From positions 3,573,784 through 3,637,783 of the forward strand of contig NZ_JAMDLG010000001.1 in assembly GCF_023721715.1 (NCBI RefSeq): a stretch of 64,000 nucleotides of DNA, given 5' to 3'. Made by a program: the position numbers and the translations under genes. Each line of letters opens with the position of its first letter. The first letter of the stretch is position 1. Below are positions 31,893-45,240 of this stretch, in pieces. Under the pieces are notes generated by a model. That model was not told the DNA's origin. It did not search any database and saw only the letters and a list, made by a program, of their open reading frames with translations. The DNA comes from Parasegetibacter sp. NRK P23 (GTDB taxonomy: Bacteria; Bacteroidota; Bacteroidia; Chitinophagales; Chitinophagaceae).

Positions 31893-32570
31893 TTACAGAA
31901 CGTGTTGATATACAGCAAATAACTTCCAGAAAAGTTTGGGCTGGCTGAAATCGAAGGCCTGCTTTCTGAACTCGTTTAATACGAGGTGGATTTCGGGAGG
32001 ATTCATTTCGTAGCGTCCGAGCATAATCTCTTTTTCGGAAGTATACAGCCCGGTTTTATGCTGACACAGGTGAATGTTTTGTTGGGTTACTTCTTCAAAG
32101 ATCAGCACATCGTGCACCTGGTATTGCGGAAGCGCAGCGTGATGGGGAATATTATGGTTGAAGGTAAGGGCGATCAGGTGATTGCGGGTGGTTTCCGGAA
32201 GTACCAGTTTGGGAAAGGCCGTCCAGTCGTTGAAGGCAAGTTCCTGGTAGCTGCACCTGATGTAGATATTGTCGTTGATGAAAGGGATTTCGCGTAAATG
32301 AAGTTGAGTCAGTTGGGTTTCTTCCACCAATAGTTTATCGCCATTGAACTGGAGTATCTCGTTGATGGTAAGTTGCTCGTTGATGAACTTCTCCAAGGGG
32401 ATGCAAAAATAATTGGCAATTCGGACCGCCGTTTCTATTCTCGGTTCGGCCCTGTTTTCTTCGTAAGAGGAAATATTACCTCTCGTGAGGTCAAACAGAT
32501 CGGCAAAGGACTGCTGGCTCAGGCCTTTGGTGGTGCGTATCTTTTTGATGTTTGCTCCGATTTTTGTCAT
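31893..32570 (-). CDS. XRE-family (Cro/C1-type HTH) transcriptional regulator
   Basis: A 225-residue DNA-binding protein. Residues about 4-62 form the helix-turn-helix domain (IGANIKKIRTTKGLSQQSFADLF, RGNISSYEENRAEPRIETAVRIA). The C-terminal 150 residues are a beta-rich region (VLPETTRNHLIALTF, YQVHDVLIFEEVTQQ) resembling the S24/LexA-like fold sometimes fused to such domains. I see no clear Ser-Lys protease dyad, so it may be a ligand- or signal-sensing domain. It is transcribed away from the PspA/flotillin/AAA operon across a 103-nt gap and is the obvious candidate regulator of it. Confidence 0.85.
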   Translation of the reverse strand: MTKIGANIKKIRTTKGLSQQSFADLFDLTRGNISSYEENRAEPRIETAVRIANYFCIPLEKFINEQLTINEILQFNGDKLLVEETQLTQLHLREIPFINDNIYIRCSYQELAFNDWTAFPKLVLPETTRNHLIALTFNHNIPHHAALPQYQVHDVLIFEEVTQQNIHLCQHKTGLYTSEKEIMLGRYEMNPPEIHLVLNEFRKQAFDFSQPKLFWKLFAVYQHVL

Positions 32571-32575
32571 CAGGG

Positions 32576-32583
32576 CAAATATA
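32576..32583 (-). promoter_or_regulatory. -7 box of the XRE regulator (leaderless)
   Basis: TATATTTG on the minus strand ends 5 nt before the ATG at 32570, so transcription should start at or next to the start codon. It is 34 nt from the divergent operon's -33 element. Confidence 0.55.
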
Positions 32584-32616
32584 GGGGTAATTTTTTTATC
32601 TTTTATGCTAATTTAA

Positions 32617-32648
32617 TTTGCAATTTTAAATTGCTGTTTGTAGATTTG
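32617..32648 (+). promoter_or_regulatory. Promoter of the PspA-flotillin-AAA operon
   Basis: TTTG at 32617-32620, a 20-nt spacer and TAGATTTG at 32641-32648 match the Bacteroidota primary-sigma consensus exactly. The first gene starts at 32674. Confidence 0.75.
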
Positions 32649-32673
32649 TTTTCGAAAGTTGAAATTAAAGCCG

Positions 32674-33066
32674 ATGAATCATTTTGAGTTGATTGAAGGG
32701 TTCGCTGAAAGGCTTCATTGCCGGATCATTTACAAGGACGCGCAAAGCGGCATACTGAAACTCGACAACGAAGCCGACGGGATCAATAACCTGATCATCG
32801 GGATCGCTCCGCCGATCCTGATCATGGAGCAGTTTCTTTTTTCCTTCCGGGACGACCATCCCGACATGTTCAAGAAACTGCTTCAGAAGAACAGGGATAC
32901 CATCCATGGCGCTTTTGTGATCAATGAAGAAGGAAACAAAGTGCTTTTCAGGTATACCATGCAATTGGAGAACATCAATTTCAATGAGTTCGAAGGCGCG
33001 ATTAACTCACTGGGGCTGCTGTTGAGTGAGTATGCGCAGCAGATCATCGACTTTTCAAAATTGTAA
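32674..33066 (+). CDS. YbjN/Tir-chaperone-like small protein, first gene of the PspA operon
   Basis: A 130-residue cytoplasmic protein. The start at ATG 32674 is preferred over an upstream TTG because it follows the promoter and begins MNHFELIEGFAERL. The alpha/beta pattern fits the type III secretion-chaperone/YbjN fold: an N-terminal helix, then strands (CRIIYKDAQ, LIIGIAPPILIMEQFLFSF), helices, VLFRYTMQLENINFNEFEGAINSLGLLL and a C-terminal helix. Proteins of this shape often sit beside pspA genes outside enterobacteria. It likely binds a partner in the cassette as a chaperone or adaptor. PspA begins 19 nt downstream. The family assignment is by fold pattern only. Confidence 0.65.
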   Translation: MNHFELIEGFAERLHCRIIYKDAQSGILKLDNEADGINNLIIGIAPPILIMEQFLFSFRDDHPDMFKKLLQKNRDTIHGAFVINEEGNKVLFRYTMQLENINFNEFEGAINSLGLLLSEYAQQIIDFSKL

Positions 33067-33085
33067 ACAAGTAAAAGCGTCAGCC

Positions 33086-33787
33086 ATGAACATCTTCAAA
33101 AGATTATTGCGGATCGGGCAGGCAGAAATACATGCCGCGGTTGAAAAAATGGAAGATCCCGTTAAAATGACGGAGCAAGGGTTGAGGGAACTGAGAGAAG
33201 ACCTTACCGAGGCAACTGAAGCATATGCAAAAGTGAAGGCCCTGGCCATACGGACCGAAAATGACCAGGCGCACTGCCAGAAAGAGTCCATGAATTATGC
33301 GGAAAAAGCTATCTTGATTATGCAGAAGGCGCAGGCCGGACAAGTAGAGATCGGGAAAGCGGAAGAACTGGCCAGGGAGGCCCTTTCTTTGCGCCGGAAG
33401 TTTTATGCCGAATCGGAAGAACTTGGCCAGCAGGTAACGGCCCTGCAGCAGTCGTCCAGGGAAATGCTCAGGAATACCGAAATATTAAGAGAGAACCTGG
33501 AAAAGTGGGAGAAGGAATTGCGGACGCTGAAAGCAAGGGTGAAAGTGAGTAAGGCAACGGAACAGGTGAACAAACAACTGGCGCAACTGGACAATAACGG
33601 GACCATCGCCATGCTCGAAAGGATGAAGGCCAAGGTTGAGGACCAGGAAGCTTTATCGCAGGCTTATGGTGAGATTGCCCGGAGTAAACACAGCATGAAA
33701 GATGAGTTGGATAAATTCCTGAAAGATGATACACTGTCCATTGAAAAAGACCTTCAGGCCATCAAAGAAAAACTAGGTATCCAGTAA
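33086..33787 (+). CDS. pspA: PspA/IM30 (Vipp1) family membrane-stress protein
   Basis: A 233-residue, almost wholly alpha-helical coiled-coil protein of the ESCRT-III-related PspA/IM30 family. The N-terminal amphipathic membrane helix (MNIFKRLLRIGQAEIHAAVEK) is followed by MEDPVKMTEQGLRELREDL, the usual hairpin region, and later helices to about 225. The start at ATG 33086 restores this N-terminus. Family members polymerise on damaged membranes and preserve proton-motive force; in enterobacteria PspA also restrains the PspF activator, but no PspF-like gene is present. The partners here are a YqiJ-like protein, a flotillin and a giant AAA+ protein, so ATP-driven remodelling is plausible. Confidence 0.92.
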   Translation: MNIFKRLLRIGQAEIHAAVEKMEDPVKMTEQGLRELREDLTEATEAYAKVKALAIRTENDQAHCQKESMNYAEKAILIMQKAQAGQVEIGKAEELAREALSLRRKFYAESEELGQQVTALQQSSREMLRNTEILRENLEKWEKELRTLKARVKVSKATEQVNKQLAQLDNNGTIAMLERMKAKVEDQEALSQAYGEIARSKHSMKDELDKFLKDDTLSIEKDLQAIKEKLGIQ

Positions 33788-33801
33788 ATTCTCTTTAATA
33801 T

Positions 33802-34482
33802 ATGTCCGGAATATTTGACCTGCTCTTCCATCCGCTCAGTAACGCAATAATGACCGTGCTTACCGGCATTACCGCCGTGTATTGGTTGTTCACTTTCATT
33901 GCCGGCGATCTGTTCGGGGAAGCGGGCGCTGATGCCGGAATAGAAGTCGACGGCGCTGATGTTGACACGGATACTGATACGGACCTCGGGGATTCGGTAG
34001 GCGATAAGTCAATGCTACAAAAAGCGATGGATTACGTGAACATCGGAAAAGTGCCGTTTATGGTAGTGTATTCGATGTTTAAGTTCCTCGCGTGGATCAT
34101 CACACTGGTTTCTTCTATAGCCCTGGGACTGGCGGGTTGGGGGTGGAAATCGGTGTTCATCCTGCTGCCGGTTTTTCTCGTGGCTTTTTTTGTCACACGT
34201 TATGCCACCAAACCGCTCGTTAAAGTGTACAATGCCATGGGATATAACGGAGAAGAAGCCCAGGAGATAATGGGACGGGTAGCCCGTATGCGGTCCACTA
34301 TTGCGGGAGATACGATCGGAGCCGCTGAACTGGTGATCCAGGGCGATGTGCTCCGGGTAAACGTAAAAAGTAAAACCGGTGAAACACTTGCTTATGATGC
34401 GGAAGTAATGATCTCAGATGAGTCGCCCGATAAAAAATATTACCTCGTGGTGCCGGAAATTAATTTAAACAATGTAGTATAG
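33802..34482 (+). CDS. YqiJ/NfeD-like membrane protein with C-terminal OB-fold
   Basis: A 226-residue inner-membrane protein. The first TM lies at about 14-34 (AIMTVLTGITAVYWLFTFIAG). A strongly acidic loop follows (about 40-65, DVDTDTDTDLGD), then two further TM segments (about 84-135, including LAWIITLVSSIALGLAG and VFILLPVFLVAFFV). The C-terminal 85 residues (GRVARMRSTIAGDTIGAAELVIQGDVLRV) form a beta-rich OB-fold-like domain. This is the plan of E. coli YqiJ (DUF1449) and related NfeD proteins, which pair with flotillins; here too the flotillin gene follows, 57 nt downstream. The acidic loop may bind cations, which is speculation. Confidence 0.82.
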   Translation: MSGIFDLLFHPLSNAIMTVLTGITAVYWLFTFIAGDLFGEAGADAGIEVDGADVDTDTDTDLGDSVGDKSMLQKAMDYVNIGKVPFMVVYSMFKFLAWIITLVSSIALGLAGWGWKSVFILLPVFLVAFFVTRYATKPLVKVYNAMGYNGEEAQEIMGRVARMRSTIAGDTIGAAELVIQGDVLRVNVKSKTGETLAYDAEVMISDESPDKKYYLVVPEINLNNVV

Positions 34483-34539
34483 TAGAATAAAACCCCTTTC
34501 TAAACAGAACACATCATTAACCTTAAATCAATTTAATCT

Positions 34540-36567
34540 ATGGGAATGCTCGGTGGTGTCAGCCTGCTCTTCATTGGCGGCATTGTATTTTTCGTCTTTA
34601 TTATTCTCTTCGCTTTCGCTACATTCTACAAGAAAATTCCGCAGGGGAAAGCCATTGTGCGTACCGGTGTGGGTGGCGGTAAGGTAGCCTTCAACAAAGG
34701 AATGTATGTGATCCCCATCCTGCATAAAATGGAGATCATGGATATTTCTGTAAAGAAATTGCAGATAGACCGGATGGAACACGACGGCCTGATCTGTAAG
34801 GATAACATCCGTGCCGACATCAAAGTGGCCTTCTTTGTGCGGGTAAACAAAAATGTGGATGATGTGCTGAATGTGGCGCAGATCATTGGTACCGACAGAG
34901 CCAGTGATGTGGATACTTTACGCAACCTTTTCGAAGCGAAATTTTCTGAAGCGCTGAAAACAGTGGGCAAGAAATTCGACTTCATAGAATTGTACGAAGC
35001 CCGCAGGGAATTCAGAACGGAAATACTGAACATCATCGGTACCGATCTGAACGGGTATATCCTGGACGATTGCGCTATCGACTACCTGGAGCAAACGGAA
35101 ATCACTTTTTTAAGTCCGCAGAATATCCTCGATTCACAAGGCATCAAAAAGATCACTGAACTCACCGCCGAACAGAACATCAAGGCGAACCTGATCAAGC
35201 GGGAGGAAGAGAAAGTGATCAAGAAGCAGAACGTGGAGGCGAGAGAAGCCATCCTGGAGCTGGAGCGCCAGATGGCCGAAAAAGAAGAGAAGCAGCGCAG
35301 AGAGATCGATAACATCCGGGCGCGTGAGAATGCCGAGATCGTGAAAGTGCGGGAAGAAGAGCGGCTGAAAGCGGAAACCGTGCGCATCAGAACCGATGAA
35401 TCCCTGGCCATCCAGGAGGAGAACAAACTGCGCCAGATCATCATCGCTGAAAAGAACAAACAACGTACCGATGCGGTGGAAACAGAAAGGGTGGAAAAGG
35501 ACCGCGCACTGGAAGCGACCGAAAGGGAAAAAATCGTAACCCTCGCTCAGATCGAAAAAGAGAAGACCCTTGAAGTGGAGAAGAAAAATATCCAGGATGT
35601 GATCAGGGATCGTGTGCGTTTGGAAAAAGGCGTGGTGGAAGAGCAGCAGGGGTTAAAAGACATCGAAGCTTTTCGTGCCGTGGAGCGCGAAAAAAGCGTA
35701 GGTATCACACAGGCCAGTCAGCAGGCGGAGGAAAAACTCATCTATACCGTGAAGCAGGCGGAAGCTGAGAAAAAAGCCGCGGAAGAAAGGGCCAAACAAA
35801 TGATCATCGACGCTGAAGCGAAGAAAGAGGCGGCTGTAAAAGAAGCGGAGGCCCGCAAAATACTGGCCGAAGCGCAGGCGCGTGAAGAAGCTACACTTGG
35901 CTTGTCTGAAGCCGAAGTGATGATGGCCAAAGCCGAAGCTGCGGAAAGGCAGGGTACCGTGGATGCTTCCGTGATCGAGAAGATCGCTGAGGCGAGACGC
36001 AAGGAAGGCTTAACGCAGGCCGAGGTTACCAAAGAGAAAGCGCTTGCCGAAGCCGCGGGCATAGAAGAAAAAGCCGAAGCCATGAAGAAGCTGGATGCTG
36101 TTGGGAAGGACCATGAAGAATTCAAACTCCTGCTCACCAAAGAGAAAGACATCGCCCTGGCGCAAATCAATATTCAAAAAGATATCGCCGACGCGCAGGC
36201 TGGTGTGCTGGCCGAAGCGCTCAGGTCAGCGAATATCGATATCGTGGGTGGAGAAACCATGTTCTTCCAGAACATCGTCAACCAGATTTCCAACGCCAAA
36301 GGATTTGACCGCCTCATCAATGAGAGTGAGAACGCTACTCAATTGAAAACCGCGCTCATAGGCGATGGTTCCAACAGCGGCGACCTGTTGGAACGTATCC
36401 GCGGTTTCGCGGAGAAATACAATATCAGTACCAATGATATCAAGAACCTGACCATTTCCAGTTTAATTTTGAAGATGCAGCAACAGAGTTCAGAAGGAGA
36501 CAGGCCAATGCTGCTGAACCTCGCGAACCTCGCCAGCAGCCTGGGCATTTCTAATAAGAAATTGTAA
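34540..36567 (+). CDS. Flotillin-family (SPFH/band 7) membrane scaffold, YqiK-like
   Basis: A 675-residue protein with one N-terminal TM helix (about 7-29, LLFIGGIVFFVFIILFAF). An SPFH/band 7 domain follows (about 30-210, GKAIVRTGVGGGKVAFNKGMYVIPILHKMEIMDI to ILDDCAIDYLEQTEI), then a very long charged coiled coil rich in Glu, Lys, Arg and Ala (about 225-560). The C-terminal domain includes VGGETMFFQNIVNQ. Flotillins assemble large cages or scaffolds in membrane microdomains. The YqiJ-like gene just upstream is its usual partner. A hairpin and degenerate repeats, not a clear terminator, separate it from the AAA+ gene. Confidence 0.92.
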   Translation: MGMLGGVSLLFIGGIVFFVFIILFAFATFYKKIPQGKAIVRTGVGGGKVAFNKGMYVIPILHKMEIMDISVKKLQIDRMEHDGLICKDNIRADIKVAFFVRVNKNVDDVLNVAQIIGTDRASDVDTLRNLFEAKFSEALKTVGKKFDFIELYEARREFRTEILNIIGTDLNGYILDDCAIDYLEQTEITFLSPQNILDSQGIKKITELTAEQNIKANLIKREEEKVIKKQNVEAREAILELERQMAEKEEKQRREIDNIRARENAEIVKVREEERLKAETVRIRTDESLAIQEENKLRQIIIAEKNKQRTDAVETERVEKDRALEATEREKIVTLAQIEKEKTLEVEKKNIQDVIRDRVRLEKGVVEEQQGLKDIEAFRAVEREKSVGITQASQQAEEKLIYTVKQAEAEKKAAEERAKQMIIDAEAKKEAAVKEAEARKILAEAQAREEATLGLSEAEVMMAKAEAAERQGTVDASVIEKIAEARRKEGLTQAEVTKEKALAEAAGIEEKAEAMKKLDAVGKDHEEFKLLLTKEKDIALAQINIQKDIADAQAGVLAEALRSANIDIVGGETMFFQNIVNQISNAKGFDRLINESENATQLKTALIGDGSNSGDLLERIRGFAEKYNISTNDIKNLTISSLILKMQQQSSEGDRPMLLNLANLASSLGISNKKL

Positions 36568-36574
36568 AGTTTTA

Positions 36575-36621
36575 CAAAGACGCAAAGTGCCGGTGCAATT
36601 GAACCGCTCCTTGCGTCTTTG
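36575..36621. repeat. CGCAAAG-type intergenic hairpin
   Basis: A perfect 11-bp inverted repeat (CAAAGACGCAA at 36575-36585, TTGCGTCTTTG at 36611-36621), 7 nt after the flotillin stop. The sequence resembles a dispersed intergenic repeat I know from Bacteroidota. It has no T run, so it is more likely a repeat or an RNA-stability hairpin than a terminator. Confidence 0.55.
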
Positions 36622-36624
36622 CTC

Positions 36625-36695
36625 CTGCGAGGCCGCAAGGCTGCGAGGCACGAAGCAGGAAGCAGCGCGTCTTTGCGAGATACAAAGCAATCGCG
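36625..36695. repeat. Degenerate TGCGAGGnACGAAGCA repeats
   Basis: One good copy (TGCGAGGCACGAAGCAGGA, 36642-36660), one partial copy before it (from 36626) and one diverged copy after it (TTGCGAGATACAAAGCAA, from 36674). The same unit forms the array at 44945-45240. They lie in the leader of the AAA+ gene. Confidence 0.65.
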
Positions 36696-36747
36696 TGAAA
36701 AAATCCTTCCACCTTATCACTTAGTTCGCTTCAGAAAGTATTCAAGC

Positions 36748-39700
36748 ATGGCAAGTACTGAAAACACAACAACGATATTAGATTCCGGTACTTACGAAAT
36801 CATCCGGAGCCGGCTGGAGCAGCAACGGATCGAACTCGCGCAGCGGCTCGCGCAACTGAACGCCGCACGGAAGGAAATATTCAGTTCCTCCGGCTTCCGC
36901 CTTGTGGCCAACCAGCGCATTACCACCGGTAACAATGGCGTGGCAAGGGGTATTATGGCGTTCGGGGAACTCACCCTATTCGCTTATAATGTACATTTCG
37001 GTTTGCGCGAAGACATCCGCCTCAGCGATGTGTTCAGCATCTACAAATTTACCGGCGATCACTTTGAACCGCAACCACTCACGCTGATCGAAGATGAAAA
37101 TTTCATCACCGATTTTACCAACCTGTATAAATATTACAGAGACTCCATTTTCGCCAGATTCACCAAAACGGAGCACTATCTCTACATGATCTTCCAGACA
37201 GGCAAAAGCGCCGACGACAGGAAGGCGTTCAAATGGCTGATAAAAAACGACCAGCTTTTTTATGTGGACGACAGGAGCGTACACGAGGTGAAAAAAGCGC
37301 CGCAGTACGATTTTAACTGGATCAAAACCGACCTCAGCAACCGGAGGCTCGGCGTTCATCCCCACATCTCGGTGATGGATAAGGTGTTCATAGAAGCACT
37401 AAACGGAGATGTTACTTTTAAGATCGAAAACAACACGGATACAGGAAAGGGTATCTTCTCCGATCCTGTCCTTAACAAAGACCAGCAACTCGATGATGCG
37501 GAATACTATTACGGAGACCTGGGCAACCTGGTTCCTATCAAGATAAAACCCTACCAGGAAGATTTTCGCGCCTACATCTTTAATGTACGGACCAAACAGG
37601 TGATGCCCATCCCTTCTTTGCTGGATGCGGGTGTGTTGTTGCCCGACAACCAGGGCATTATCTTCCCCAACGGTTATTACCTCCAGAACGGAGAATACAA
37701 GCTTTTTGAATCGGACCTTACTGAACTTGAATTCGTACGCAGCATCGCCTCCCCAAATGGTGAGGATTTCCTGTACGTTTTTTACCAGCGTGTGCTGAAC
37801 ACCTATGTGCTGATGTCGTACAATATGATACAGCAACAGGTGGAAACGCCCATCGTTTGCAACGGGTTCACGGTATTTGATGATGGTATGCTGGTGTATT
37901 TCCGTTCGGAGCCGGAAGCGGTAAGGCACCACCAGGTGCAGATCTGGCAAACGCCCTATACATTGGCTTTGGAGGAGAACACCGCGATGAGTGGAAACGT
38001 GTTGTTTAAGATCGGCAACAAGGACATCGTGAGCGCGATGAGCGAGAGCCAGGAAGTAATTCAGTTGTTGCAGAAAGAAGACAGTTACGAGGCGCTCTAT
38101 GAAGACGTTTACAAGCGGGCCAATGATATCCTCGACGCTTACTTCTGGATCAGGGACGATGCCACGTTCAACCTGGCCGCTCCTTTAACGCAGATCAGGG
38201 ATATCGCGGACACCGCGATCGATGAATTCGCGAAAGTGCAGGCCCAGCGCAAACACGCGAAAGATACGCTGGATGCCGTGCGCAAAAGAGTGGATCAACT
38301 GGTGGTGGATGTAAAGAACGCGTCCATCAGTTCGCTTGATCAACTGGTGGACCTGCTGGCCGCCACCAGGAACATGCAGGGCGCGGTGATTGACCTGCTC
38401 AACGTCAGGTATATGGACGTGCCGGCGGTGGAAGAACTGAAAACCTTACTGCAACAATACAACGCCCGGCTGTCTGAGGATACGATTCATTTTTTGCTGA
38501 AGGAAGAGGCGCTTGCGCCTTATGAAAAACGAGTGGCCGAACAGAAAAAAGCGGCTTCAGCCGTTGCCAAAGTAATTGACGCGGTGCCTGTGGAAGAGGC
38601 TGTGAAAGGGATCGCAACAGGATTGGAAATGCTGATCGATATCCTGAACAGCTTAAAAATAGAAGATACCACACAGGCGACGAAGATCATCGAAAAGATA
38701 TCGCTCATCTTCGCTTCCCTGAATGAAGTAAAGGCCGAACTGGTGCGTACCACCACCGCGTTGCGCACGAAAGAATCCACGAGCGAATTTTATGCACAGC
38801 TGACTTTACTCGACCAGAGCATTGTCAATTTCCTGGACCTCTCCACTTCTCCCGAAAAATGTGAGGAATATTTTACGAAGATCAGTATACAGGTGGAGGA
38901 GCTGGAAAGTAAGTTCGCGGATTTCGAGGAGTTTGTCGGGAAGATCGCCGATAAACGGGATGAGGTCATTAAAGCGTTTAATGGTAAGAAAGACCTTCTG
39001 GTGGCCCAGCTCAATAAACGCAGCGCCGCACTTGAACAGATTGGTGTCAGGGTACTGAAAAACATTGAGAACAAAGCACAGTCGTTCACCGATAAAGAAA
39101 GTATTTACGCGTTCTTTTCCACCGATCTGATGATCGATAAAATACGTGGATTGTCAGAAGAATTGCGGACGCTTGGCGATGTAGCCAAAGCGGAAAACCT
39201 GGATAACCTTCTGAAAGTGGCGCAGGAAACTGCGCTCCGCAACCTGAAAGACAAAACGGACCTGTTCGCCAACGGGCAGAATGTGATCGCGCTGGGTCCG
39301 TACAAGTTCGTCGTCAACAAGCAGGTGCTCGACCTCACTATTGTCCGGAGGAATGAACGGCTTTTCTTTCACCTCACGGGTACCGGTTTTTACAAGGAAG
39401 TGACCGCGGAAACTTTGTACACGTACCGTTCGATATGGGAGCAGGAACTGGTTTCGGAAAACATTGAAGTGTACCGTTCCGAATACCTGGCGCACCAAAC
39501 CTTGGTTGAAAATAATAAACATCCTGCACCATGGGATGCGGAAGCTTTTATTAACGAACGCACGGAGCGTGATTACGCGGCCGCGTACATGAAAGGGGTG
39601 CACAATACGGATGCCCTGCTTATTTTTAACGGGCTGAAAAAACTGCGGGATGAACTGGGCATTCTTGAATTCGCGCCGGCAGTCCGCGTGGCAGCGCAGT

Positions 39701-41592
39701 TGTTTTGGTTCTCCTTAGATGAAAATACACAAAACAGGCTGCTGCAACTGATCGCCGCGGCATATGCTATTGAACAAAGTTTCCCTGGCGGACAACGTGC
39801 GGCATTCGTGGAAAAGGAGATCGTTGAACAGTATCACAAACAGATGGGTTCCGGTGCTGCCATAAACCCTTCTTCCGTTGCACATTATTTGTACAGAGAG
39901 TTCTCCGGTTCCGGGAATTTTACCTGCAGCGAACAGGCTGTTCACCTTAAGAAGGCTTTCAGGGATCATCTTTTCTCCGTGAAGCGGACTGAAATTTTTG
40001 AACAGGAAGCCGCTAATACCATGTTCTCTGTTGAAGAGCGGTTCCACATCATCTACAGTTGGCTCCGGGCTTTTCTTTCAGCACAAACAACGGAGACAGA
40101 TGAATTTTATGTAGAGGAAACCGTTTGCCTCTTGCTTTTCAGGGACCATCCTTACCGTGAACGGCCGGCATCGGACCATCTATGGCTGGAAGGCATGAAG
40201 GGTACGCACGCCGTTATTATGGAAGGAGGAAAATACCTGTTGCATTACCACAGGTTCCTTCAGAAAATGCAAACATATTCAGAAACGATCGTGCCTGCTT
40301 TTACGGCGTTCAACCAGGAAAAGGAGCGATTGGTGAAGGCGTACAAACAGCAGTTGAAGATTGCCGAGTTCGAACCGAAAGTGCTGAGTTCATTCGTAAG
40401 GAACCGACTAATCAACGAAGTGTATTTCCCACTGATCGGCGCCAATCTTGCGAAGCAGATCGGGGCTGCGGGAGATGATAAACGTACGGCCAGGATGGGC
40501 ATGCTGCTGCTGGTATCGCCACCGGGTTACGGTAAAACAACCCTGATGGAGTACCTGGCCAAAACGATGGGATTACATTTTGTAAAGATCAACGGCCCTA
40601 CGATCGGACATCAGATTACTTCAATCGATCCGCTGGAAGCCACCACATCAGGCGCAAGGGAAGAATTGAAGAAGATCAACCTTTCGTTTGAAATGGCGGA
40701 TAACGTGATGTTGTACATTGATGATATCCAGCATTGCAGCGCCGAATTCCTGCAAAAATTCATCTCCCTCGCGGATGGACAACGCAAGATGGATGGCATC
40801 TTTGAAGGCGACAGCAAAACTTATGACCTGCGGGGAAAACGCTTTTGTGTGGTAATGGCCGGAAACCCTTACACAGAAAGCGGAGAGCAATTCAAAATAC
40901 CAGATATGCTCGCCAACCGGGCCGATGTGTATAACCTCGGTGATGTGATCGGCGGATCTGATCAGCTCTTTAAACTTAGTCTGGTCGAAAACGCCATAGC
41001 CGAGAATATTTACCTCCAGCGCATTGCCGGCCGAAGTTTCGATGATTTGTATAAACTGATCAATTACGTTGAAACCAACAGCGAATTGCTACCCGAACTG
41101 GAAGGTAACTACAACCGGCAGGAAACTGAAGACGCCATTGCTGTGTTGAAAAGTGTATTGCGCATAAGGGACATTGTTGTTAAAGTGAATGCCCACTATA
41201 TCGCCAGTGCAGCCATGAAAGACGCATACAGAACCGAACCGCCATTTAAGTTGCAGGGTTCATACCGCAACATGAATAGAATGGTGGGCAAAGTGGTGCC
41301 GTTAATGAACGAGGAGGAAGTACGCATGCTTATCCGTTCTCATTACGACGGTGAATCTCAAACGCTTACTTCCGATGCGGAAGCCAACCTCCTCAAATTG
41401 AAAGAGATCGCGGGATTCCTTGCTCCTGAGGAGGCCACACGCTGGCAACAGATTGTGGAAGTTTTTAGAAAGAACAACAGGTTCAGCGGACTGGAAGCAA
41501 ACGATACGTCCGGGCAGATGCTCACACAGTTAAGTGCTTTCAACGAACACCTGGAGGCGATCGCGAAGGCACTTGGAAGGAATTCATCCTAA
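36748..41592 (+). CDS. Giant AAA+ ATPase of the PspA-flotillin cassette ('DNA repair ATPase'-type)
   Basis: A 1614-residue protein. The start at ATG 36748 is chosen because the longer frame upstream reads through interspersed repeats. Residues about 1-430 form a beta-rich region (FGELTLFAYNVHFGLREDIRL, FYVDDRSVHEVKK, DFLYVFYQRVLNTYVLMSYN) that may be a propeller. About 440-860 is alpha-helical coiled coil; 860-1200 is mixed. The AAA+ module is C-terminal: Walker A SPPGYGKTTLMEY with K1263, Walker B MLYIDDIQH with D1325/D1326, then VVMAGNPYTESG and ANRADVYNLGD. Database relatives are often labelled DNA repair ATPase, but nothing here shows DNA action. The context points to membrane remodelling with PspA and flotillin. 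Confidence 0.85.
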   Translation: MASTENTTTILDSGTYEIIRSRLEQQRIELAQRLAQLNAARKEIFSSSGFRLVANQRITTGNNGVARGIMAFGELTLFAYNVHFGLREDIRLSDVFSIYKFTGDHFEPQPLTLIEDENFITDFTNLYKYYRDSIFARFTKTEHYLYMIFQTGKSADDRKAFKWLIKNDQLFYVDDRSVHEVKKAPQYDFNWIKTDLSNRRLGVHPHISVMDKVFIEALNGDVTFKIENNTDTGKGIFSDPVLNKDQQLDDAEYYYGDLGNLVPIKIKPYQEDFRAYIFNVRTKQVMPIPSLLDAGVLLPDNQGIIFPNGYYLQNGEYKLFESDLTELEFVRSIASPNGEDFLYVFYQRVLNTYVLMSYNMIQQQVETPIVCNGFTVFDDGMLVYFRSEPEAVRHHQVQIWQTPYTLALEENTAMSGNVLFKIGNKDIVSAMSESQEVIQLLQKEDSYEALYEDVYKRANDILDAYFWIRDDATFNLAAPLTQIRDIADTAIDEFAKVQAQRKHAKDTLDAVRKRVDQLVVDVKNASISSLDQLVDLLAATRNMQGAVIDLLNVRYMDVPAVEELKTLLQQYNARLSEDTIHFLLKEEALAPYEKRVAEQKKAASAVAKVIDAVPVEEAVKGIATGLEMLIDILNSLKIEDTTQATKIIEKISLIFASLNEVKAELVRTTTALRTKESTSEFYAQLTLLDQSIVNFLDLSTSPEKCEEYFTKISIQVEELESKFADFEEFVGKIADKRDEVIKAFNGKKDLLVAQLNKRSAALEQIGVRVLKNIENKAQSFTDKESIYAFFSTDLMIDKIRGLSEELRTLGDVAKAENLDNLLKVAQETALRNLKDKTDLFANGQNVIALGPYKFVVNKQVLDLTIVRRNERLFFHLTGTGFYKEVTAETLYTYRSIWEQELVSENIEVYRSEYLAHQTLVENNKHPAPWDAEAFINERTERDYAAAYMKGVHNTDALLIFNGLKKLRDELGILEFAPAVRVAAQLFWFSLDENTQNRLLQLIAAAYAIEQSFPGGQRAAFVEKEIVEQYHKQMGSGAAINPSSVAHYLYREFSGSGNFTCSEQAVHLKKAFRDHLFSVKRTEIFEQEAANTMFSVEERFHIIYSWLRAFLSAQTTETDEFYVEETVCLLLFRDHPYRERPASDHLWLEGMKGTHAVIMEGGKYLLHYHRFLQKMQTYSETIVPAFTAFNQEKERLVKAYKQQLKIAEFEPKVLSSFVRNRLINEVYFPLIGANLAKQIGAAGDDKRTARMGMLLLVSPPGYGKTTLMEYLAKTMGLHFVKINGPTIGHQITSIDPLEATTSGAREELKKINLSFEMADNVMLYIDDIQHCSAEFLQKFISLADGQRKMDGIFEGDSKTYDLRGKRFCVVMAGNPYTESGEQFKIPDMLANRADVYNLGDVIGGSDQLFKLSLVENAIAENIYLQRIAGRSFDDLYKLINYVETNSELLPELEGNYNRQETEDAIAVLKSVLRIRDIVVKVNAHYIASAAMKDAYRTEPPFKLQGSYRNMNRMVGKVVPLMNEEEVRMLIRSHYDGESQTLTSDAEANLLKLKEIAGFLAPEEATRWQQIVEVFRKNNRFSGLEANDTSGQMLTQLSAFNEHLEAIAKALGRNSS

Positions 41593-44838: not shown

Positions 44839-44944
44839 AAGCTTAAATTTAATAAAGGATAAAAATGTCTTTTATAGATTAAAGTAAGCCTTGCCCAAAA
44901 ATCAGCATCTCCAAAATGTTTGGTCCAACGTTGCGCCTGCGAAC

Positions 44945-45240
44945 TGCGAGGCACGAAGCAGGAAACAGCCCGTTGCGAGGTACGAAGCAATTGCCGGAAC
45001 AATAAATTAGTAAAAAGCCAACCGAATTCCTCAGAAACAATTTCAAACACGAATAAGGCAGTGTATCTGCAAGGCTACAAAACAGTGAGGTATAAAGCAA
45101 TTGTTAAAAAAGCTAACCGGATTCATCAGCATCAAACACAAACAACGCTGCGAGGCACGAAGCAGTGCGTCCTCACTCCCTTGCGTTGCGAGGTACGAAG
45201 CAATTGCGTGGCTGCGAGGTAAGAAGCAGGAAGCAATGCG
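44945..45240. repeat. Array of six TGCGAGGnACGAAGCA repeat units
   Basis: Units start near 44945, 44973, 45085, 45148, 45186 and 45212. The best preserved read TGCGAGGTACGAAGCAATTG or TGCGAGGCACGAAGCAGGAA; the 45085 copy is diverged (GTGAGGTATAAAGCAATTG). Units alternate between endings GCAATTGC and GCAGGAA. They fill most of the 465-nt gap between ruvB and the Rrf2 gene and create false coding frames in both directions. The unit resembles a dispersed repeat seen in many genomes (TTGCGAGGAACGAAGCAAT). Confidence 0.8.

What the first reader, a model, noticed from the sequence alone, without database searches (positions are those of the whole stretch)
31893..41592. Candidate membrane-remodelling system: PspA + flotillin + YqiJ-like + chaperone-like + giant AAA+ ATPase
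Five co-directional genes behind one strong promoter (TTTG-N20-TAGATTTG) encode a YbjN/Tir-like adaptor, PspA/IM30, a YqiJ/NfeD-like OB-fold membrane protein, a flotillin and a 1614-residue protein with a C-terminal AAA+ module. A divergent XRE regulator shares the promoter region. PspA is ESCRT-III-related, and ESCRT-III is recycled by a AAA+ ATPase (Vps4), so a dedicated ATPase in the same run suggests an analogous PspA-disassembly or membrane-repair machine. Related gene neighbourhoods have been noted in comparative genomics, but I know of no functional study of this set.
Basis: partly seen in the sequence, partly recalled or inferred. Interest (0 to 1): 0.78.

Follow-up and report, generated by a model that had tools for sequence, protein, structure and literature searches.

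The report
Flotillin–AAA+ ATPase operon with detachable PspA
A real and widely conserved bacterial gene set that makes a membrane scaffold protein (a flotillin) together with a giant ATP-driven machine; the stress protein PspA that first drew attention looks like an optional attachment, so the machine probably serves the scaffold rather than taking PspA apart.

Summary
In detail: a divergent XRE regulator, then CesT/Tir-like chaperone, PspA, YqiJ-like protein, flotillin and a 1614-aa propeller/coiled-coil/AAA+ ATPase (DUF3686). The same order, regulator included, occurs in 75 of 87 phylum loci. It is already in print (Ravi et al. 2024, PMC11237479), and an apparently corresponding P. aeruginosa operon (bac) has experimental data. 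The Vps4-like 'PspA-disassembly' reading is not supported. Flotillin precedes the ATPase in 96 of 98 loci, though other genes intervene in 18 of 85 phylum loci. Among 296 phylum genomes the close flotillin homologue occurs in exactly the 8 with DUF3686; 109 of 117 PspA genomes lack DUF3686. Eight loci lack XRE, CesT and PspA together; no PspA was found in those genomes, yet the ATPase stays under strong purifying selection. XRE, CesT, PspA and an operator (TGCWAA-N5-TTWGCA over the -33 box) behave as one module. Best reading: a flotillin scaffold with its own AAA+ remodeller, resembling SPFH-AAA+ pairs such as HflKC-FtsH but protease-free, plus an optional stress-regulated PspA module. New data on a known arrangement; mechanism inferred.

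The parts
31893..32570 (-). XRE-family HTH regulator, 225 aa, divergent; C-terminal half without a conserved Ser
   Evidence: HTH_3 E 1.7e-10; homologue divergent in the same place in 75 of 87 loci; alignment of 76 sequences
32606..32622 (.). putative operator TGCTAATTTAATTTGCA (TGCWAA-N5-TTWGCA); right arm overlaps the -33 box
   Evidence: at most 1 mismatch in 68 of 76 XRE/CesT upstream regions vs 40 of 9070 control tiles; exact form at two places in the own genome; not found within 400 bp upstream of YqiJ in the 8 loci without XRE
32618..32648 (+). Bacteroidota-type promoter TTG-N20-TAGATTTG
   Evidence: a TTG-N17-23-TAnnTTTG match somewhere in 29 of 76 upstream regions (my count of the output, not all at the same position)
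32674..33066 (+). CesT/Tir-like (YbjN superfamily) chaperone or adaptor, 130 aa
   Evidence: CesT_Tir_1 E 5.3e-45
33086..33787 (+). PspA/IM30 (ESCRT-III superfamily), 233 aa
   Evidence: PspA_IM30 E 9.2e-38; matches solved PspA/Vipp1, best E 1.3e-14; only PspA match in this genome
33802..34482 (+). YqiJ-like membrane protein, 226 aa
   Evidence: YqiJ_N E 0.0056, below cut-off; homologue upstream of the flotillin in 83 of 87 loci
34540..36567 (+). flotillin (SPFH protein), 675 aa, with long Glu/Lys/Ala-rich stretch and conserved C-terminal part
   Evidence: profile built here hits the annotated SPFH protein of pQBR103 at E 8e-148, itself Band_7 E 9e-11; alignment
36575..36621 (+). RNA hairpin directly after the flotillin stop codon
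   Evidence: 70-nt window MFE -26.3 kcal/mol, z -2.8; at this place z < -2 in 50 of 86 loci vs 5 of 76, 3 of 76 and 2 of 84 after CesT, PspA and YqiJ
36748..41592 (+). 1614-aa ATPase: N-terminal helix, beta-propeller (about aa 47-403), helical coiled coils (about 424-838), C-terminal AAA+ (about 1200-1520)
   Evidence: DUF3686 E 1e-160, DUF7902, AAA/AAA_5; models; propeller matches; invariant Walker A/B, sensor and Arg positions in 43 sequences

Best explanation
A two-layer membrane-maintenance system. Core: an SPFH scaffold (flotillin) with its YqiJ/NfeD-type partner and a dedicated giant AAA+ ATPase. The ATPase is inferred to dock on the scaffold through its propeller and coiled coils and to use ATP to remodel, disassemble or extract proteins of the flotillin-marked domain. 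It would work like other SPFH-AAA+ pairs (HflKC-FtsH, prohibitin-m-AAA; recalled) but without a protease. Optional layer: PspA, coating damaged membrane (established for the family), with its CesT/Tir-like partner. The XRE protein is inferred to repress the promoter by binding TGCWAA-N5-TTWGCA over the -33 box until envelope stress. Shown here: gene content, order, co-inheritance, purifying selection, operator conservation, domain architecture. Inferred: binding, docking, substrates, the inducing signal.
For: Flotillin upstream of the ATPase in 85 of 87 phylum loci and directly upstream in 11 of 11 plasmid-collection loci from Bacteroidota, Pseudomonadota, Actinomycetota and Deinococcota. Close flotillin homologue (best E 1e-160 or lower) in exactly the 8 of 296 genomes with DUF3686. 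XRE, CesT and PspA are present together (75 loci) or absent together (8 loci). No PspA found in those 8 genomes. dN/dS of the ATPase 0.021-0.033 in four pairs without PspA vs 0.031-0.040 in four pairs with it. PspA-less ATPases fall in two separate places on the tree among PspA-bearing relatives. Operator present with XRE, not found upstream of YqiJ without it. P. aeruginosa bac operon: adjacent genes linked by RT-PCR, and partners rise 6.1- to 13.5-fold without BacA (PMC10948618 passages).
Against: No physical interaction is shown. Gaps over 300 bp separate flotillin and ATPase in 21 of 85 loci, with one to three co-directional ORFs of 100 aa or more between them in 18, so the pair is not always tightly linked. 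Flotillin itself has higher dN/dS in the PspA-less pairs (0.028-0.040) than in the PspA-bearing pairs (0.006-0.014): genus differences may explain this, but so would a flotillin-PspA contact. In full cassettes PspA and flotillin are both kept, so the ATPase may act on both. The 80 named loci are the best of 122 and biased to close relatives. Draft assemblies could hide a PspA. One MAG (L086) has the ATPase and no detectable flotillin. Deleting SPFH genes, paFlo3 of the bac cluster among the set studied, gave no pronounced phenotype in P. aeruginosa PA14 (PMC13086221 passages).
Confidence: 0.57

Rival explanations
1. One reading: the ATPase is a bacterial Vps4 analogue that disassembles PspA polymers.
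For: PspA is ESCRT-III-related; the full cassette is the commonest form here (75 of 87 loci) and all 8 DUF3686 genomes of the 296 sampled have PspA. Ravi et al. compare other PspA/Snf7-AAA+ associations with Snf7-VPS4 (passage about a different, two-AAA+ protein). A solved Vps4 is among the Foldseek matches (rank 33).
Against: ATPase kept under strong selection in 8 genomes with no PspA found; 109 of 117 PspA genomes in the sample lack DUF3686; no MIT domain hit; PspA seen in the fetched flanks of 2 of 11 plasmid-collection loci.
Confidence: 0.12
2. The ATPase serves both: in full cassettes the CesT-like protein adapts PspA to a flotillin-docked ATPase, so PspA is a conditional substrate.
For: CesT and PspA always come together and join the same core; flotillin dN/dS is higher where PspA is missing; PMC10948618 mentions an unpublished strong BacA-BacB interaction.
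Against: No direct evidence; PspA occurs without DUF3686 in most genomes sampled.
Confidence: 0.2
3. An anti-phage or conflict system.
For: Patchy distribution: 8 of 296 phylum genomes and 3 of 59 relatives, own genome counted; five flanking genes of the window have no match at E 1e-10 in the 87 loci; PA3728-PA3732 are upregulated in phage-infected P. aeruginosa (one passage of PMC12041424).
Against: PADLOC gives no convincing match for the five operon genes (best for the ATPase mad8, E 5e-4); upregulation on infection also fits ordinary envelope stress (Psp induction by phage is classical, recalled).
Confidence: 0.08
4. DNA-repair ATPase, as databases name it.
For: Pfam and record labels.
Against: No support for the label was seen here; the constant partners are membrane-scaffold genes.
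Confidence: 0.02

Closest known systems
CesT/Tir-PspA + band-7/flotillin + AAA+ (beta-propeller, coiled coil) + YqiJ operon of Ravi et al. 2024 (PMC11237479; section 19 and passages read)
   Same: Same five proteins and domain architectures; they also report shorter flotillin-YqiJ operons, some with the AAA+, without PspA.
   Different: Section 19 does not mention the XRE regulator or operator, coupled absence of XRE-CesT-PspA, genome-wide PspA absence, selection on the ATPase, or the hairpin (supplements not read). They suggest the short operons may work with PspA encoded elsewhere; in the 8 genomes tested here none was found.
P. aeruginosa bac operon (PA3732-PA3729 plus PA14_16190 and PA14_16200; PMC10948618 and PMC2587700, passages)
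   Same: CesT-fold BacA, PspA BacB, a short NfeD and the SPFH protein PaFlo3 (PMC13086221 passages), then PA14_16190, by position PA3728 (my inference), which PMC8190622 lists as an ATPase.
   Different: BacA is of the DUF2170 type; a sigma-54 site is proposed instead of an XRE operator; a sixth gene is present. Sequence orthology of PA3728 was not tested here.
HflK/HflC-FtsH and prohibitin-m-AAA (recalled; HflKC-FtsH also in PMC13086221 passages)
   Same: SPFH protein paired with an AAA+ machine at the membrane.
   Different: No protease domain among the Pfam hits of the ATPase; different domain architecture (propeller, coiled coil). Membrane anchoring of the ATPase was not tested.
ESCRT-III/Vps4
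   Same: PspA is an ESCRT-III superfamily member; an AAA+ ATPase is encoded nearby.
   Different: No MIT domain hit; ATPase retained without PspA; constant partner is the flotillin.
B. subtilis PspA with the SPFH protein YdjI (PMC8581546, search listing only; PMC9239133 passage)
   Same: PspA associated with an SPFH protein.
   Different: No AAA+ ATPase of this type mentioned in what I saw.

Membership tests
CesT/Tir-PspA-flotillin-AAA+ operon class (Ravi et al. 2024) | CesT/Tir-PspA dyad with TM/band-7/flotillin protein, YqiJ-type protein and AAA+ with N-terminal propeller and coiled coil | tested here: met
   the YqiJ assignment is weak by Pfam (E 0.0056)
PspA/IM30 | PspA_IM30 domain over the whole length | tested here: met
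   E 9.2e-38, residues 2-228 of 233; matches solved PspA/Vipp1
CesT/Tir chaperone | CesT/Tir-type domain over the curated cut-off | tested here: met
   CesT_Tir_1 153 bits vs cut-off 27
Flotillin/SPFH | SPFH (Band 7) domain | tested here: met
   Indirect only: no Pfam hit for the window protein; profile-linked homologue L101 has Band_7 E 9.3e-11, while the homologues in L100 and L105 have no hit either
YqiJ/NfeD | YqiJ_N or NfeD domain over the curated cut-off | tested here: inconclusive
   YqiJ_N 17.3 bits vs cut-off 23; homologue L103 NfeD 18.5 bits vs 29.1
Vps4 | N-terminal MIT domain (recalled as defining) | tested here: not met
   No MIT among Pfam hits up to E 0.1; N-terminal part models as helix, beta-propeller and coiled coils
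Vps4 | Classic-clade AAA domain | tested here: inconclusive
   AAA 36.3 and AAA_5 33.9 bits both pass; model has a beta-hairpin (aa 1347-1360) before the sensor-1 strand at pLDDT about 70-74; best VIA matches NorQ Z 13.8, CbbQ2 13.3, ClpA 13.2; Foldseek first Rix7
Vps4-like PspA recycler | Occurs only where an ESCRT-III/PspA substrate occurs | tested here: not met
   No PF04012 match in 8 of 8 genomes with the PspA-less cassette; other ESCRT-III families not searched, completeness not stated
Active AAA+ ATPase | Walker A, Walker B, sensor 1 and Arg residues conserved | tested here: met
   SPPGYGKTT, YxDDIQH, GNPYTE, NR and SYR columns invariant in 43 sequences; the second Walker B acid is Asp; activity not tested
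P. aeruginosa bac operon | Orthologous ATPase by sequence | not testable with these tools
   Only the label 'ATPase' for PA3728 was seen
Known anti-phage defence system | PADLOC model match | tested here: not met
   Only weak partial hits, and generic HTH matches for the XRE protein
HflKC-FtsH-like complex | Physical complex of SPFH protein and AAA+ | not testable with these tools
   No complex prediction available

The most novel reading that the evidence does not exclude
A flotillin scaffold with its own dedicated, protease-free AAA+ remodelling machine: an energy-driven membrane microdomain, with PspA and its XRE/CesT control as a detachable stress module. It would be a new functional class of SPFH-AAA+ machine and would give flotillins an ATP-driven partner.
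Probability: 0.5. Interest if true: 0.75.

Novelty: new member of a known kind. Interest (0 to 1): 0.5.

Why it matters
How bacterial flotillins work, and whether an ATP-driven machine remodels the domains they mark, is open. A flotillin-ATPase partnership that matched one to one in the sampled genomes and survives the loss of PspA moves the target of experiments from PspA to flotillin. The PspA-less Myroides and Dysgonomonas lineages are natural deletion experiments, and the conserved operator gives a handle for switching the system on.

Tried and rejected
No relative of the ATPase was found in viral contigs (peptide patterns only) or in 50,697 phage records. PADLOC gave no defence system. 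phmmer of the flotillin against PDB sequences gave one weak tropomyosin hit; the CesT-like protein gave nothing credible. DUF3686 is named in no held paper. For functional work on such a set I searched; of the papers opened, those that bear on it are Ravi et al. and the bac/PaFlo papers. Supplements were not available. A separate promoter for the ATPase was sought only as TAnnTTTG: none in the window gap, 2 of the 50 gaps of 30-400 bp examined.

Limits of the counts. The operator motif was noticed by eye in these same data, so its counts are descriptive; control tiles come from the same loci. Two of the eight XRE-less loci have an exact-type match farther away (L073 about 650 bp upstream of YqiJ, L040 about 5 kb upstream). 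Fewer hairpins after the flotillin gene have a T-rich tail (16 of 86) than after the ATPase gene (28 of 82), so I do not call them terminators; in 18 loci another gene follows the flotillin. Vps4 is not among the 50 VIA rows shown; that excludes nothing. Foldseek TM-scores are low throughout. In one search only 4 first-look candidates per genome were scored. PspA and CesT in the plasmid-collection loci were sought with profiles built from Bacteroidota, which could miss distant ones; 11 of the 12 records with a match were fetched (the second Proteus record was not).

Rows left out: the hairpin count after the ATPase omits L039, L077 and L082 (split frames) and loci without 70 nt downstream. The tree omits split ATPases, L039 among them, and treats L028, L068, L086 and L093 as unknown. 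The structure alignments hold the window plus 42 and 41 of 77 usable sequences, thinned by identity and then by hand. The whole-genome PspA check covered the 8 PspA-less genomes plus L028, L086 (none found) and L093 (PspA found, on a contig that also holds a flotillin piece). dN/dS used 4 hand-picked pairs per state, sharing genomes, some with saturated dS.
Full report
What is there. The window carries a divergent XRE regulator (31893-32570, minus strand) and five co-directional genes: CesT/Tir-like (32674-33066), PspA (33086-33787), YqiJ-like (33802-34482), flotillin (34540-36567) and a 1614-aa ATPase (36748-41592). Pfam confirms CesT_Tir_1 (E 5e-45), PspA_IM30 (E 9e-38) and, in the ATPase, DUF3686 (E 1e-160), DUF7902 and AAA/AAA_5. 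The YqiJ match is below cut-off and the flotillin has none. The flotillin is assigned through a homologue in plasmid pQBR103 found by the profile built here (E 8e-148) that does carry Band_7. PspA is the only one found in this genome.

Conservation. 75 have the order XRE(divergent)-CesT-PspA-YqiJ-flotillin-ATPase. Eight have YqiJ-flotillin-ATPase only, two show a partial flotillin plus ATPase (L028, L093), and two the ATPase alone (L068, L086). L068 and L093 lie near contig ends and have flotillin sequence on another contig. L028's flotillin is truncated. L086, a MAG, has no detectable flotillin. The flotillin-ATPase link is not always tight: 21 of 85 gaps exceed 300 bp, and in 18 one to three co-directional ORFs of at least 100 aa lie between, for example a 477-484-aa gene in eight Sphingobacterium loci. 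In 11 of the 12 matching plasmid-collection records (Bacteroidota, Pseudomonadota, Actinomycetota, Deinococcota), flotillin is directly upstream of the ATPase in all 11. A YqiJ-like gene is clear in 9 and marginal in 1. PspA is seen in the roughly 9-kb flank in 2, Hymenobacter and pQBR103.

PspA is optional, flotillin hardly. In an even draw of 296 genomes of the window's phylum, DUF3686 occurs in 8 and the close flotillin homologue (best E 1e-160 or lower) in the same 8. Of the 13 other genomes with a hit, 11 have best E 1e-39 to 7e-63 and 2 are marginal (4 candidates scored per genome). PspA over the cut-off occurs in 117, including those 8, so 109 PspA genomes lack DUF3686. The converse is sharper. 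For the eight loci without XRE-CesT-PspA (five Myroides, two Dysgonomonas, one Flavobacteriaceae MAG), a whole-genome search found no PspA, while DUF3686 was found in all eight; completeness of these assemblies is not stated. On an ATPase tree these fall in two places among PspA-bearing relatives: the Myroides group beside Apibacter, and Dysgonomonas macrotermitis beside two Dysgonomonas with PspA (FastTree, with long-branch warnings near the phylum root). Two losses are the simplest reading. In four pairs of the Myroides group the ATPase has dN/dS 0.021-0.033, against 0.031-0.040 in four pairs with PspA, so selection on the ATPase did not relax. Flotillin, however, has 0.028-0.040 without PspA against 0.006-0.014 with it. 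That may be a genus effect or a sign that flotillin loses a partner with PspA. One PspA-less ATPase, L039, is split into two frames in the assembly.

Regulation. XRE, CesT and PspA are present or absent as one module (75 versus 8). Between XRE and CesT lies TGCWAA-N5-TTWGCA, with at most one mismatch in 68 of 76 regions (window included) against 40 of 9070 control tiles from the same loci. The exact form with 4-6 bp spacing occurs in 61 of 76 against 9 of 9070. In the window it is 32606-32622 and overlaps the TTG of the promoter at 32618-32648. It occurs exactly at one other place in this genome. It was not found in the 400 bp upstream of YqiJ in the eight XRE-less loci, although L073 has a match about 650 bp upstream and L040 one about 5 kb away. 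Repression by XRE is inferred from this geometry. The regulator's C-terminal half has no conserved Ser, so LexA-type self-cleavage is unlikely.

A hairpin after flotillin. The 70 nt after the flotillin stop codon fold better than dinucleotide shuffles (z < -2) in 50 of 86 loci, against 5 of 76, 3 of 76 and 2 of 84 after CesT, PspA and YqiJ, and 41 of 82 after the ATPase, the last gene of the set. Stem sequences differ even between sister Sphingobacterium loci (L056 and L092), so position rather than sequence is kept. A T-rich tail follows in 16 of 86. It may lower the dose of ATPase relative to scaffold or stabilise the upstream message; neither is shown, and where another gene follows the flotillin it may simply end the upstream transcript.

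The ATPase. Models give an N-terminal helix, a beta-propeller (best VIA match DCAF1 WD40, Z 10.1, rmsd 4.5, 198 aligned), long coiled coils (mean pLDDT 83) and a C-terminal AAA+ (mean pLDDT 71, pTM 0.49). Walker A, Walker B (DDIQH), sensor and arginine positions are invariant across 43 sequences, so it is predicted to be active. The AAA+ model matches NorQ (Z 13.8, rmsd 4.2, 240 aligned), CbbQ2 (13.3) and ClpA (13.2) best by VIA, ties within 1, whereas Foldseek ranks Rix7 first and a Vps4 at 33. A beta-hairpin precedes the sensor-1 strand, which by recall is not a classic-clade trait. I leave the clade open. No MIT domain is hit.

Prior work. Ravi et al. 2024 (PMC11237479; section 19 and passages read) describe this operon and shorter versions without PspA. 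The P. aeruginosa bac operon (PMC10948618 and PMC2587700, passages) has a CesT-fold first gene and PspA second, then, by PMC13086221 (passages), an NfeD and an SPFH gene. PA14_16190 follows, by position PA3728 (my inference), labelled ATPase in a table of PMC8190622. RT-PCR links the six genes, five Bac proteins rise 6.1- to 13.5-fold in the bacA mutant, and a mutant of the PspA-type gene is biofilm-defective. Against a strong role, deletion of SPFH genes in PA14 gave no pronounced phenotype (PMC13086221). [quoted passage not shown] I did not compare PA3728 by sequence.

Conclusion. The Vps4-like reading is not supported as the ATPase's main task. The data favour a flotillin-dedicated AAA+ machine with an optional, XRE-controlled PspA module; docking, substrates and signal remain inference.

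Noticed in passing
L054, L055, L059, L063, L074, L079, L091, L092, between flotillin and ATPase: A 477-484-aa secreted-looking gene (shared motif RLDSLF near the N-terminus) sits between flotillin and ATPase in eight Sphingobacterium loci; other insertions include one to three ORFs in L010, L027, L029, L030, L033, L034, L039, L076, L080 and L096.
   Followed up: partly
L027:8673-9302 and L039:9260-9886: In two Dysgonomonas loci a lipoprotein-like gene between flotillin and ATPase; in L027 it has a zincin-like motif HELAHTEGLGHC.
   Followed up: no
   Followed up: no
L101 (plasmid pQBR103): YjfI-PspA-rhomboid-DUF2491-DUF350-DUF1190-glutathionylspermidine synthase run directly into YqiJ-SPFH-ATPase, merging two operon classes that Ravi et al. 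list separately.
   Followed up: no
L100 and L106 (Streptomyces plasmids): Flotillin-ATPase pairs near cation/proton or sodium/proton antiporter genes.
   Followed up: no
window 36639-36666, 44944-44969, 45147-45165, 45210-45235: Short dispersed repeat (19-26 bp, 92-100% identical to the first copy) in the flotillin-ATPase gap and at three places near 45 kb.
   Followed up: partly
G000:C1:2281734-2281750 (L108): Only other exact TGCWAA-N5-TTWGCA site in this genome; neighbours not examined.
   Followed up: no
L039, L077, L082: ATPase frame split in two in these assemblies; sequencing error or real decay not tested.
   Followed up: no
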